Source of the DNA: Haladaptatus paucihalophilus DX253
GTDB taxonomy: Archaea; Halobacteriota; Halobacteria; Halobacteriales; Haladaptataceae
Reading direction: 5' to 3'
DNA length: 64,000 nt
NCBI RefSeq assembly: GCF_000376445.1
Contig: NZ_AQXI01000001.1
Coordinates: 2,257,734 to 2,321,733, forward strand
A program made the position numbers and the translations under genes. Positions 25,979 to 29,625 of this stretch are shown here, piece by piece. The stretch's first letter is position 1; every line of letters begins with the position of its first letter. Below the pieces are notes generated by a model that was given only the letters and a program-made list of their open reading frames with translations, did not search any database and had not been told where the DNA came from.

Positions 25979-26557
25979 ATGGAACCTCCAACGCGGCGCG
26001 ACATCGGCGGCGTCGTTCTCGACGACGACACGTACACGGTCAAACAGAGCCACTTCCGGAACAAGTACAAGGTGTACGATTCCGCCGGAAACCTCGTCCT
26101 GAAGTCGAAACAGAAGCTGTTCAAGATGAAAGAGGAGTTCCCGTTTTACGACGCCGACGGGAACGTCGTCTTTCGGGTGAAGGCGAAGAACGTCTTCGAT
26201 GTCGCCGGTGATTACGTCCTCGTGGACGAACGCTCTGGCGACCCCGTTTTAGTGCTCAACAAGAACTTCACCTTCTTCCACCACCGCTGGACGATACAAC
26301 TCCCGGACGGAACCGAACTCGCGGAAGTCGCCTCCAGAAGTGCGGTCCTCGAAGCGCTGCGGTCACTCATCGACGTCCTCTCGTTCCTCCCGCACAAGTA
26401 CTCCATCACCTCGCCCGAGGGAGATTCCATCGGCGAAATCCAGGGCCATTTCTCGCTCCGCGATAAGTACGACGTTCGCATCCACGACACGGGGTCGATA
26501 CCGAAAACGGCGCTCGTCGCGGGAGCGATAGCCATCGACGCGCTGGAAGGGAACTGA
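25979..26557 (+). CDS. LURP-one-related (LOR/scramblase-like) protein
   Basis: 192 residues. The tubby-like beta-barrel pattern is clear: DDTYTVKQSHFRNKYKVYD, then repeated strand pairs (GNLVLKSKQKLF, GNVVFRVKAKN, GDYVLVDERSG) and a central hydrophobic C-terminal helix region (KTALVAGAIAIDAL). LURP-one-related proteins are of unknown molecular function, related to phospholipid scramblases. It follows the ABC exporter by 45 bp. Its stop codon lies only 6 bp from the displaced SDR gene tail at 26564-26614. Confidence 0.85.
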   Translation: MEPPTRRDIGGVVLDDDTYTVKQSHFRNKYKVYDSAGNLVLKSKQKLFKMKEEFPFYDADGNVVFRVKAKNVFDVAGDYVLVDERSGDPVLVLNKNFTFFHHRWTIQLPDGTELAEVASRSAVLEALRSLIDVLSFLPHKYSITSPEGDSIGEIQGHFSLRDKYDVRIHDTGSIPKTALVAGAIAIDALEGN

Positions 26558-26563
26558 CCCGAC

Positions 26564-26614
26564 TCAGACCTTCTCCGGCAACCAACCGCCGTCCACTTCG
26601 ACGTTCACGCCGCT
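26564..26614 (-). pseudogene. Displaced 3' tail of the SDR gene
   Basis: Read on the minus strand, this segment encodes SGVNVEVDGGWLPEKV followed by TGA. It is identical, except the stop codon, to the end of the intact SDR gene at 28817-29554, which ends with TAA. No upstream part is attached. It is best read as the original 3' end of the SDR gene, cut off when the 2.25-kb element inserted. Confidence 0.88.
26566..26614. repeat. Left 49-bp attachment-like direct repeat
   Basis: Identical over 49 bp to 28819-28867. The identity begins at the first base of the SDR stop codon and runs into the coding region; beyond both ends the sequences differ. It is followed at once by AT-rich DNA (TAAATAATTGTCATC). 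Confidence 0.9.
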
Positions 26615-26769
26615 TAAATAATTGTCATCTAATTACACATCATACGTGAGTATTTGGAAGAACATCAAGACGTTTGGCTCAGCCATGAGGTACAGTGCAC
26701 CTTTAAGCAAGTGAAGAGTTTTTTCGATGAAATTTCACGAATGGATAAATTAAAGCCGATTGTCGGTTC

Positions 26770-26988
26770 TCAATCAGAATGTATCGTAACAAGGAATGCG
26801 TGAGATGTGAGCACTGCACCTACTGTAAATATCACCACGCTCACAACCGCACCGATATCTCCACTTCCTCCGATAGAGATGATGTTTGGTGAGATGGCAA
26901 CTAACAGGTTATTAATTGCAAAATACGCTATTACCGCCATCAGTACTATACCAACTCCTGATTGGATGGCACGATAGTTTATATTCAT
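26770..26988 (-). CDS. Small two-helix membrane protein in the insertion
   Basis: 72 residues. Two hydrophobic helices are visible (VGIVLMAVIAYFAINNLLVAI and GAVVSVVIFTVGAVLTSHAFL) around a short Gly-rich turn (SIGGSGDIG). The gene is AT-rich. It lies 43 bp downstream of the Tat-exported gene on the same strand, so the two are probably co-transcribed. A role as a membrane partner or immunity-like protein for the exported one is conceivable but is only inference from position. Confidence 0.6.
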   Translation of the reverse strand: MNINYRAIQSGVGIVLMAVIAYFAINNLLVAISPNIISIGGSGDIGAVVSVVIFTVGAVLTSHAFLVTIHSD

Positions 26989-27031
26989 GTAGAAGGATTT
27001 GATAAAGCGTTGTTTATTTTTTGCGATTAAC

Positions 27032-27895
27032 TTATAGAGTGTCGTCTCTCTGTCTATTCCCCGGTATTGTCCATGAATCTGCCCCTACAGGGAGGCTAAC
27101 ACTAATTCCAGTACCGATAACAGGTACAGCTACGTTCTGCAGAATATTCCAGTCTGCAATATTACCATAGCTCCAAGTATGTTTATACAACCCTGAAACG
27201 TTACCAACAGTCCGAGTATCTTGTTTTATTAATACCATTTGGGCGTATCCTGTGCCAACTGGGTACCACTCACTAACTCCGTCTCCGTCGACATCTCCTT
27301 GATTTCTCTTATCGTTAAAAGTCACAACGGAAGCGTTGTTTGGTGCGTCTATGTTGGCTGCGTTCGGTTCGCTCTTTAAGTCCGTAACGCCGCTCACGGA
27401 ATTCGATGTATTCGGATCCTTGAGAGTTCCACTGTAAATGATGCTATCATCTTTATATCCGAAAACATCTTGCTCATATCCCAAAATCCCGACATCAACA
27501 GGTGCTGGACCATCTACGTCACCTTTTGTGTTCTTGAGGTCCCACGATAAGCCGATAGCATATTCGTTCTTGTTTTCATTCCAGACTCCAGTAAAGAATG
27601 ACGCACTACTATCGCTTTTGTCGAAATAATCTTGAGTCGAGACTCCATCACTGGGTGGTGATTGAGTTGTAACCGAGTATTCTACATCGTGTGCATCAAG
27701 CAAGTCAAACGCTTTCTTCCTTTCTCCGCTTTTCATTAAGGAAACAAACTCATTTTTGATGCCAGCGTTAACAATCCCTGTCTTTTCTTGCTTCGCGCTT
27801 ACTCCTGCAGAAGTAAAACCTGCAGTTACTGCAAGTCCTGCAGCTGATTTGATAATGTTACGTCGTGTTTGATTTTGCCCAAGTTTCTTGCTCAT
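27032..27895 (-). CDS. Tat-exported protein of unknown function in the insertion
   Basis: 287 residues. The N-terminus is a Tat signal: NQTRRNIIKSAAG, a hydrophobic stretch (LAVTAGFTSAG) and VSAKQ. The mature part has no cysteine and no recognised domain; it is rich in Asn, Asp, Ser and Tyr and looks beta-rich (YAIGLSWDL, GTGYAQMVLI), with an Asp-rich DVDGDGVSEW stretch that may bind calcium. AT-rich throughout. It is divergent from the regulator at 28035; a TATA-like TAAAAGTAA lies about 30 bp upstream of its start. Confidence 0.72.
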   Translation of the reverse strand: MSKKLGQNQTRRNIIKSAAGLAVTAGFTSAGVSAKQEKTGIVNAGIKNEFVSLMKSGERKKAFDLLDAHDVEYSVTTQSPPSDGVSTQDYFDKSDSSASFFTGVWNENKNEYAIGLSWDLKNTKGDVDGPAPVDVGILGYEQDVFGYKDDSIIYSGTLKDPNTSNSVSGVTDLKSEPNAANIDAPNNASVVTFNDKRNQGDVDGDGVSEWYPVGTGYAQMVLIKQDTRTVGNVSGLYKHTWSYGNIADWNILQNVAVPVIGTGISVSLPVGADSWTIPGNRQRDDTL

Positions 27896-28034
27896 GCTAC
27901 AGATGCAGATTTCTGGTAGTATTACTTTTAGCTAATTACTGAAAATATTCCCAGAACATGGGAACCGACCCATAAGATGGAATTGGCCCAAATATAATCT
28001 CAAATATTATGTGGGTAGAAGAAAAATATAAGTC

Positions 28035-28808
28035 ATGCACCAGGTGTACCCTGACACTGAAGAAGTGCTGTCCCTCCTACTCAAACGAAGCAGTATTTTA
28101 TCTGTCATTTACACATCCCCCTCTACTCCGCGAGATATCACCGATAAAACTGATATATCACGATCAACTGTCGGACGTGCGCTTTTAGAGCTAGAAGAGT
28201 TCAAACTAATCAGAGACGAACACGGTCAATATCAAATGACAACTTCTGGAAAAATTTTATGGGATAAATACAAAAGTTTTATAAAATTTATATATGATGT
28301 TTCAAATAAAAGCGAAGTTTTTAATAATCTTCCAGATGGAGTACTGAACAATATCCCTCTAAATCTGTTCGTGGATGCTCGAATTATACATTCGTCTACT
28401 CAGACCCCTCTGGGAGCGATTAGAGATCTCTCATCTCGAATTTTAGAATCAGAGGACATGTCTGCCATACTACCAGTTATCCTTCCGATTGATATTGAGC
28501 TCTATCTTGATAAAATTGCCACTGAACAGATGGATGTTGATATCTTGGTAAATAATGTGTCTCACGCACATCTGCTTGACAAATGCTCCTCTGTCAAATC
28601 AGACTCTGTTAATATTTCGAAATATTCGACTCAACCGACTTCACAGCAAATCTCTTTCTGTTTATATATCCTTGATCACTCTGAGGTATGGGTTCGCTTC
28701 CACGATGAGCGAGGGAATGTAATTAATACTTTCTTAAATAAATCAATTAAAGCTGTAGAATGGGCAAATAAATTATTCAATCGATACAAACCAGAGTTGT
28801 CCGAATAG
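28035..28808 (+). CDS. FilR1-like winged-helix regulator in the insertion
   Basis: 257 residues. The N-terminal 75 residues form a winged helix (SSILSVIYTSPSTPRDI, recognition helix SRSTVGRALLELEE). The C-terminal domain (about 95-245) resembles the FilR1/DUF1724 ligand domain found in methanogen and haloarchaeal regulators. The gene is strongly AT-rich, unlike the chromosome, and is divergent from the Tat-exported gene with 139 bp of shared promoter region. Two TATA-like stretches (28001-28010 and 28023-28030) precede it. It probably controls its own cassette. Confidence 0.72.
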   Translation: MHQVYPDTEEVLSLLLKRSSILSVIYTSPSTPRDITDKTDISRSTVGRALLELEEFKLIRDEHGQYQMTTSGKILWDKYKSFIKFIYDVSNKSEVFNNLPDGVLNNIPLNLFVDARIIHSSTQTPLGAIRDLSSRILESEDMSAILPVILPIDIELYLDKIATEQMDVDILVNNVSHAHLLDKCSSVKSDSVNISKYSTQPTSQQISFCLYILDHSEVWVRFHDERGNVINTFLNKSIKAVEWANKLFNRYKPELSE

Positions 28809-28816
28809 TAGTCAAG

Positions 28817-29554
28817 TTAGACCTTCTCCGGCAACCAACCGCCGTCCACTTCGACGTTCACGCCGCTCAGGTAGTCGCTGTCTTCGTCCACGAAGAAGCG
28901 CAGCGCCTGCCCCATGTCCTCGAACTTCGCCGGTTCACCGCGAGGCAGGTCGTCGGGGAACACGTCCGAGTTTTCGACCACGTAGGGCGAAATCGCGTTG
29001 ACGGTCACGCCGTCCGCTTGGGTGTCCGCGGCGAGCATTCGGGTGAACATCAGGACGCCCGCCTTGGCGATGAAGTACGGGGCGTTCTTCGGGTTGATGA
29101 GTCCCTTCTCCGCGCTGGCGTAGCCGACGTTGACGATTCGACCGAATCCCGCCTCGCGCATCTCCGGGAGCGCCCGCTTCGAACAGAGGTAGGTTCCGTT
29201 GATGTTGCCGTCGAGCACGGCGTTCCATCGGTCGAACGAGATGTCTTCCCAGTGGTCGGGAGCGAACGGGCCGACGTTGTTCACCAGCACGTCCACGCTT
29301 CCGAGTTCGGACTCGACGGTCGAAAAGAGGGCGTCCACTTCGTCCGGGTCGGTGACGTTCCCCTGCACGGTTGTCGCTTCGACGCCGTTCTCCCGTGCGG
29401 TCTCGGCGACGTCCCGCGCCTCGTCCGCACTCGAATGGTAGTGAACGGCCACGTCCGCCCCGCAGTCGGCGAGCGAGAGGAGGAGTTCCCGCCCGACGCC
29501 CTTCGAACTTCCCGTGACCAGCGCGACTCGTCCGTCCAGTTTCGGCGTTATCAT
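28817..29554 (-). CDS. SDR-family oxidoreductase, target of the insertion
   Basis: 245 residues from the ATG at 29554 (MITPKLDGRVALVTGSSKG). The cofactor motif is GSSKGVG, the NNVG motif is present, and the catalytic Tyr-Lys pair is YFIAK. It is a FabG-like classical short-chain dehydrogenase; the substrate is unknown. The last 49 bp lie in the right attachment-like repeat and were contributed by the inserted element, yet the frame and C-terminus (GGWLPEKV) are intact. An in-frame ATG at 29581 adds nine residues. Confidence 0.9.
   Translation of the reverse strand: MITPKLDGRVALVTGSSKGVGRELLLSLADCGADVAVHYHSSADEARDVAETARENGVEATTVQGNVTDPDEVDALFSTVESELGSVDVLVNNVGPFAPDHWEDISFDRWNAVLDGNINGTYLCSKRALPEMREAGFGRIVNVGYASAEKGLINPKNAPYFIAKAGVLMFTRMLAADTQADGVTVNAISPYVVENSDVFPDDLPRGEPAKFEDMGQALRFFVDEDSDYLSGVNVEVDGGWLPEKV
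28819..28867. repeat. Right 49-bp attachment-like direct repeat
   Basis: Identical over 49 bp to 26566-26614 and still in frame with the SDR gene, of which it encodes the last 16 residues. The left side is AT-rich element DNA, the right side GC-rich chromosome. Confidence 0.9.
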
Positions 29555-29625
29555 ACGGTCCGCTTCGCGGCGGAGTCCCAACTATCTTGACATCCCGATT
29601 ATCTCGATTTTGAGTGAATCTCCCC

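What the first reader, a model, noticed from the sequence alone, without database searches (positions are those of the whole stretch)
26566..28867. Att-flanked AT-rich cassette inserted in the 3' end of an SDR gene
Two identical 49-bp direct repeats flank 2253 bp of AT-rich DNA in a GC-rich chromosome. The right repeat is the end of the intact SDR gene; the left is its detached tail. This is the pattern of site-specific insertion at a gene 3' end, where the element carries a copy that restores the gene. Such sites are normally tRNA genes; a protein-coding target with no integrase inside is unusual and may be a minimal element mobilised in trans.
Basis: partly seen in the sequence, partly recalled or inferred. 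Interest (0 to 1): 0.82.

Follow-up and report, generated by a model that had tools for sequence, protein, structure and literature searches.

The report
Small mobile cassette at gene's end
A 2.2-kb stretch of foreign DNA has inserted precisely at the end of an ordinary enzyme gene in a salt-loving archaeon, leaving the gene whole, and it carries an exported protein that resembles bacterial pore-forming proteins next to a small membrane protein; related cassettes sit at the ends of other genes in other species, so it looks like mobile weaponry that travels without its own integrase.

Summary
Confirmed: two identical 49-bp direct repeats (26566-26614, 28819-28867), 2253 bp apart, flank 40% GC DNA in a 62% GC haloarchaeal chromosome. 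All eight congeners have the empty site; joined flanks align to the nearest (G008) with no gap at the junction. The left repeat is the resident SDR tail (TGA stop); the element supplies the working 3' end (TAA). Insertion is well supported; 'fixed att plus minimal element' only partly. The cargo is a conserved module: a 287-aa Tat-signal protein, a 72-aa two-TM protein and a winged-helix regulator. Homologues occur in 30/392 genomes of the order, mostly in AT-rich islands. Two are flanked by duplicated tails of different genes (CPBP protease, 247 bp; zinc-finger gene, 42 bp); another lies on a tandem 22.3-kb integrase element at a tRNA-Ala 3' end. AlphaFold models of two members match alpha-hemolysin/leukocidin pore-formers (moderate confidence). 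Most likely: a trimmed or integrase-less integrative element whose recombinase acted in trans or was lost, carrying a toxin/immunity-like pair. Archaeal insertion into protein-gene 3' ends with a replaced stop is already known; the integrase-free size, shared cargo at unrelated gene ends and leukocidin-like product are new.

The parts
25979..26557 (+). LURP-one-related (LOR) gene, left chromosomal neighbour
   Evidence: PF04525 E 1.2e-10; same neighbour next to the SDR gene in all 8 congeners
26564..26614 (-). Left copy: resident SDR gene tail, stop TGA (26564-26566) plus the 49-bp repeat 26566-26614 (attL-like)
   Evidence: matches the empty site of G008 together with the 8 bp on its left
26615..28818 (.). 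Inserted AT-rich cassette (40% GC)
   Evidence: absent from 27 family members
26770..26988 (-). 72-aa protein with two transmembrane segments, 44 bp after the 287-aa gene; immunity-like (inferred)
   Evidence: homologues in L113 and L114
27032..27895 (-). 287-aa protein with twin-arginine signal; beta-rich model resembling leukocidin/alpha-hemolysin
27896..28034 (.). Divergent intergenic region between the 287-aa gene and the regulator
   Evidence: sequence
28035..28808 (+). 257-aa winged-helix regulator (HVO_A0261_N + FilR1_middle)
   Evidence: Pfam 2.5e-17 and 5.1e-12
28819..28867 (-). Right 49-bp repeat, the working end of the SDR gene, with element-supplied stop TAA at 28817-28819 (attR-like)
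28817..29581 (-). Target gene: SDR family oxidoreductase, intact
   Evidence: PF13561 7e-43; orthologue in all 28 family genomes

Best explanation
A small integrative element entered the chromosome by recombination inside the last 49 bp of the SDR gene. It carried a copy of that gene end, which now completes the gene, and pushed the resident tail to the far side. It has no recombinase of its own: either a tyrosine integrase from another element acted in trans, or the element is a trimmed remnant that lost its integrase. Its cargo is a three-gene module: a Tat-exported protein that probably has a leukocidin-like pore-forming fold, a two-TM membrane protein that probably protects the producer, and a divergent regulator. 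Shown: insertion, gene restoration, conservation of the module, its presence on integrase-bearing elements elsewhere. Inferred: which enzyme moved this copy, pore formation, immunity.
For: Empty site in 8/8 congeners with one repeat; ungapped junction with even identity (about 0.88) on both sides to G008, so no long donor tract in the SDR gene. Homologous cassettes at the CPBP-protease gene (247-bp repeat, 92.7%) and at a zinc-finger gene (42 bp, 97.6%) with empty-site relatives. Homologue inside a 22,283-bp tandem element with an integrase 230 bp away, at the 3' end of tRNA-Ala(GGC); another beside an integrase in G251. The own genome has 7 PF00589 genes; one of them (replicon C5) is the closest query to those two integrases (E 4e-22, 2e-22). 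SDR 3' end enriched for tail duplications, Fisher 3e-7. Small TM partner next to the gene in at least nine loci. AlphaFold/Foldseek: the top 50 PDB hits of the window protein are alpha-hemolysin/leukocidin-type toxins, best E 1.8e-6; a 26%-identical member gives mostly the same.
Against: No integrase in the cassette and no second element with the same att in the genome. No attP-like sequence in viral contigs with one exact pattern. No significant inverted repeat in the 49-bp core. Repeat lengths vary from 42 to 247 bp, and cassettes in G355 (L113) and Haloferax (L115, L187) have no repeat. The fold is low-margin: VIA-align Z 9.3 against 8.2-8.6 for Ig-like adhesins, pLDDT 72, no sequence-level match.
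Confidence: 0.6

Rival explanations
1. Homologous recombination by the host (RadA): a circle or plasmid carrying the cassette and a piece of the SDR gene end integrated by a single crossover, with no site-specific enzyme.
For: Repeat length varies between targets (42, 49, 247 bp). In G079 the right end shares TGCTGGCTAG with the 3' flank of G213, as if a homologous gene end had been imported. A decayed SDR 3' fragment lies on a 142-kb replicon of congener G001.
Against: 49 bp is short for homologous recombination. SDR tail duplications recur in several families, whereas other genes rarely show them.
Confidence: 0.22
2. One-sided homology insertion or deletion-coupled insertion: donor DNA anchored in the gene end and joined illegitimately on the far side.
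For: In Haloferax prahovense (G310) the cassette abuts the permease 3' end and replaced sppA and part of the next gene. Deletion-coupled insertions are common in Haloquadratum (PMC3119063).
Against: Here nothing was lost: left flank, 8-bp spacer and tail are intact, and the SDR body shows no donor tract.
Confidence: 0.1
3. Target-site duplication by a transposon-like insertion with a long staggered cut.
For: The 49 bp are identical in both copies although the nearest congener differs at 3 positions.
Against: No transposase and no shared termini among the three cassettes with repeats; lengths of 42 to 247 bp are unlike any single transposase; in G079 the homology continues through the stop codon into the 3' flank.
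Confidence: 0.04
4. Ancestral cassette lost from relatives by repeat-mediated deletion.
For: In Haloquadratum most repeat-flanked indels that could be polarised were deletions (PMC3119063).
Against: Absent from all 27 other genomes of the family, 40% GC, and the repeat is a duplicated gene end; many independent losses would be needed.
Confidence: 0.04

Closest known systems
Thaumarchaeal integrated elements in protein-gene 3' ends (e.g. NitEve-E2 in a Zn-finger gene; PMC6563490)
   Same: Insertion in the 3'-distal part of a protein gene, resident stop replaced by an element-derived stop, empty site in a relative
   Different: Reported there as integrated mobile elements with a 13-bp att for NitEve-E2; here 2.2 kb, no recombinase, 49-bp repeat, haloarchaeal host
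Archaeal tyrosine-recombinase elements at tRNA genes (PMC8371274)
   Same: 3' end of a gene as target; a homologue of this cargo lies on such an element in G132
   Different: Target is an oxidoreductase gene; no integrase gene in the insert
Deletion-coupled insertions of Haloquadratum (PMC3119063)
   Same: Foreign DNA placed precisely in a syntenic background; fits the Haloferax relative of the cassette
   Different: No resident DNA was lost here and a long direct repeat is present
Leukocidin/alpha-hemolysin and Vibrio cytolysin family
   Same: Predicted fold of residues 35-287
   Different: No detectable sequence similarity; Tat-type signal; archaeal; function untested

Membership tests
Site-specific integrative element at a gene 3' end | Direct repeat equal to the gene end, element restores the gene | tested here: met
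Site-specific integrative element at a gene 3' end | Empty site with one repeat copy in relatives | tested here: met
   8 of 8 congeners; ungapped alignment of joined flanks to G008
Site-specific integrative element at a gene 3' end | Integrase gene inside the element | tested here: not met
   No PF00589 or other recombinase in the insert; so not filed as an autonomous integrative element
Site-specific integrative element at a gene 3' end | Circular form with attP | not testable with these tools
   No reads; one exact attP-type pattern had no match in viral contigs
Leukocidin-type beta-barrel pore-forming family | Sequence match to a known family model | tested here: not met
   Pfam, NCBIfam and PDB profile searches; so not filed as a sequence member
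Leukocidin-type beta-barrel pore-forming family | Fold | tested here: inconclusive
   Foldseek best E 1.8e-6 and VIA Z 9.3, but Ig-like adhesins reach Z 8.2-8.6 and TM is about 0.3
Leukocidin-type beta-barrel pore-forming family | Oligomeric pore in membranes | not testable with these tools
   needs an assay
Transposon | Transposase or conserved termini | tested here: not met
   No transposase in the insert; no common ends seen by eye among window, L116 and L118

The most novel reading that the evidence does not exclude
Haloarchaea carry a widespread family of integrase-free mobile competition cassettes: a Tat-exported leukocidin-fold pore-former with a dedicated two-TM immunity protein, moving between the 3' ends of protein-coding genes by borrowing other elements' recombinases and restoring each target gene.
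Probability: 0.3. Interest if true: 0.82.

Novelty: new variant of a known kind. Interest (0 to 1): 0.6.

Why it matters
If right, it joins two little-studied subjects: how small DNA cassettes move in archaea without their own enzymes, and what proteins archaea use against each other. The empty sites in relatives and the neighbouring two-gene module make both questions directly testable in haloarchaeal laboratory strains. A leukocidin-like fold in archaea with a Tat signal would widen the known range of that pore-forming fold.

Tried and rejected
Third copy of the repeat or a second element with the same att in the own genome: none. Cassette DNA in 27 other family genomes: none. 287-aa protein in phages: none; in plasmids: one, Haloprofundus halobius, 29%. 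attP-type pattern in viral contigs: 0 matches (one exact pattern, so weak). PADLOC, PHROGs and NCBIfam: nothing for the 287- and 72-aa proteins. Inverted repeats in the 49-bp core: 7 of 11, reached by 28% of shuffles. Hybrid test of the two CPBP tail copies in G120 against orthologues: unreadable, copies appear mixed. Tail duplications at the L113, L115 and L187 sites: none. Rfam on the short repeat elements: none. Considered and rejected as main account: transposon target duplication, ancestral presence with loss.

Full report
Observation. The two 49-bp repeats are exact, at the stated coordinates, 2253 bp apart, and the only two copies in the 4.3-Mb genome. They enclose 40% GC DNA in a 62% GC window. 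The right copy is the 3' end of an intact SDR gene on the minus strand; the left copy is a detached tail 8 bp beyond the stop of a LURP-one-related gene. The left tail ends in TGA, as in the nearest congener, while the working gene ends in TAA, so the element brought its own gene end.

Insertion. All eight congeners have the order ABC transporter, LOR, SDR, UspA with one tail. The G008 junction reads GGGAACTGATCCGACTC-AGACC...GCCGCT-CAGGTAGTCG, which is the window's left flank, core and right flank. Joining the window flanks in silico gives an ungapped junction in the alignment to G008, with identity near 0.88 throughout. The cassette DNA was found in none of the 27 other genomes of the family. 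Insertion is therefore far more likely than loss. The evenness also argues that no long donor tract replaced the SDR gene, so the exchange happened inside the 49 bp.

Cargo. The insert encodes a 287-aa protein with a twin-arginine signal, a 72-aa protein with two TM segments 44 bp downstream, and a divergent 257-aa winged-helix regulator with HVO_A0261_N and FilR1_middle domains. The 287-aa protein has homologues in 30 of 392 genomes of the order (its own included), patchily; the best are about 45% identical. Many lie in AT-rich islands of 1.5-2.5 kb. A small TM protein, mostly with two segments, lies next to the gene in at least nine loci, the arrangement expected of an effector and its immunity protein; that role is inferred.

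Fold. AlphaFold models of the window protein (pLDDT 72, pTM 0.76) and of a 26%-identical member (pLDDT 68) both match staphylococcal alpha-hemolysin and leukocidins best (E 1.8e-6 and 4.9e-6). VIA-align gives Z 9.3 to the cytolysin domain of Vibrio cytolysin over 172 residues, but Ig-like adhesins reach 8.2-8.6, TM-scores are near 0.3, and sequence profiles find nothing. I regard a leukocidin-like pore-former as likely but unproven.

The same cargo elsewhere. In G120 a homologous cassette lies between a CPBP-protease gene and a 247-bp copy (92.7%) of its tail, spacing 1847. G315 has a single tail, G176 has the same cassette split by a later rearrangement, and G082 appears to have lost part of it. 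In G079 the target is a 76-aa zinc-finger gene, repeat 42 bp, with empty sites in five relatives. In Haloferax prahovense (G310; named) the cassette abuts an ABC-permease 3' end and replaces sppA and part of the next gene, without a repeat. In G132 the gene lies on a 22,283-bp element present in tandem, with a tyrosine integrase 230 bp away, at the 3' end of tRNA-Ala(GGC). In G251 it also lies beside an integrase. So the cargo is carried by different elements with different target genes; the repeat belongs to the target, not to the cargo.

Hotspot. The SDR gene end is duplicated in other families too. A control of 437 genes gave 7 of 41 SDR loci (the window included) against one IS unit in 396 other genes (Fisher 3e-7). 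However, the six other SDR cases in that control contain a short dispersed repeat element of its own kind, so they may reflect another process. G011 (L033) has an older, 71-bp duplicated tail 0.7 kb away with a lipoprotein-like gene between.

Mechanism. Best supported is recombination inside the gene tail by a tyrosine integrase acting in trans or since lost. For: gene-end target, restored gene, cargo shared with integrase elements, seven integrase genes in the genome, one of which is the closest query to those beside the homologues. Against: no helper with the same att, no clear core symmetry, variable repeat lengths. RadA-mediated single crossover remains the strongest rival.

Known context. 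Archaeal elements in protein-gene 3' ends with an element-derived stop codon have been described in Thaumarchaeota (14 of 68 mapped sites; NitEve-E2 in a Zn-finger gene; PMC6563490). Deletion-coupled insertions (PMC3119063) resemble the Haloferax variant. What is new here is an integrase-free 2.2-kb unit in an SDR gene, a cargo family shared among unrelated gene ends, and its leukocidin-like product.

Limits. Genomes are one per species and unnamed; strain-level comparison was not possible. E-values of the genome searches are per genome. The control used simple gene calls, and the first-look step scored only two candidates per genome, so duplicated tails may have been missed.

Noticed in passing
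L043, L044, L045, L065, L078, L082 (SDR 3' ends); L195-L224: A short dispersed repeat (gene orientation TTTTTRGYGYAGATTTTTGC...AAAAAGGTRCGTGT) in 25 of 26 genomes of one haloarchaeal family; several copies sit between a gene and a duplicated copy of that gene's tail, and in L210 the duplicated 21 bp look like a tRNA 3' end. No Rfam match.
   Followed up: partly
L232-L235 (G132:C1:886563-931134): Tandem array of a 22,283-bp integrase element at tRNA-Ala(GGC), each copy carrying the 287-aa homologue.
   Followed up: yes
G000:C1:1981519-1982040 and 2009287-2009808 (L225, L226): Two identical 408-aa integrase genes 27.8 kb apart in the window's own genome, perhaps another tandem-integrated element.
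   Followed up: no
L035:8321-8566 (G001:C3): Decayed 3' fragment of an SDR gene (last 83 aa) on a 142-kb replicon of a congener.
   Followed up: partly
L033, 0.7 kb downstream of the SDR gene of G011: Older duplicated SDR tail (71 bp, 83%) with a 196-aa lipoprotein-like gene in between, in another genus.
   Followed up: partly
L187 (G192) and L115 (G310): Two divergent homologues of the 287-aa gene lie next to the same ABC-permease 3' end in two Haloferax species, in opposite orientation.
   Followed up: partly
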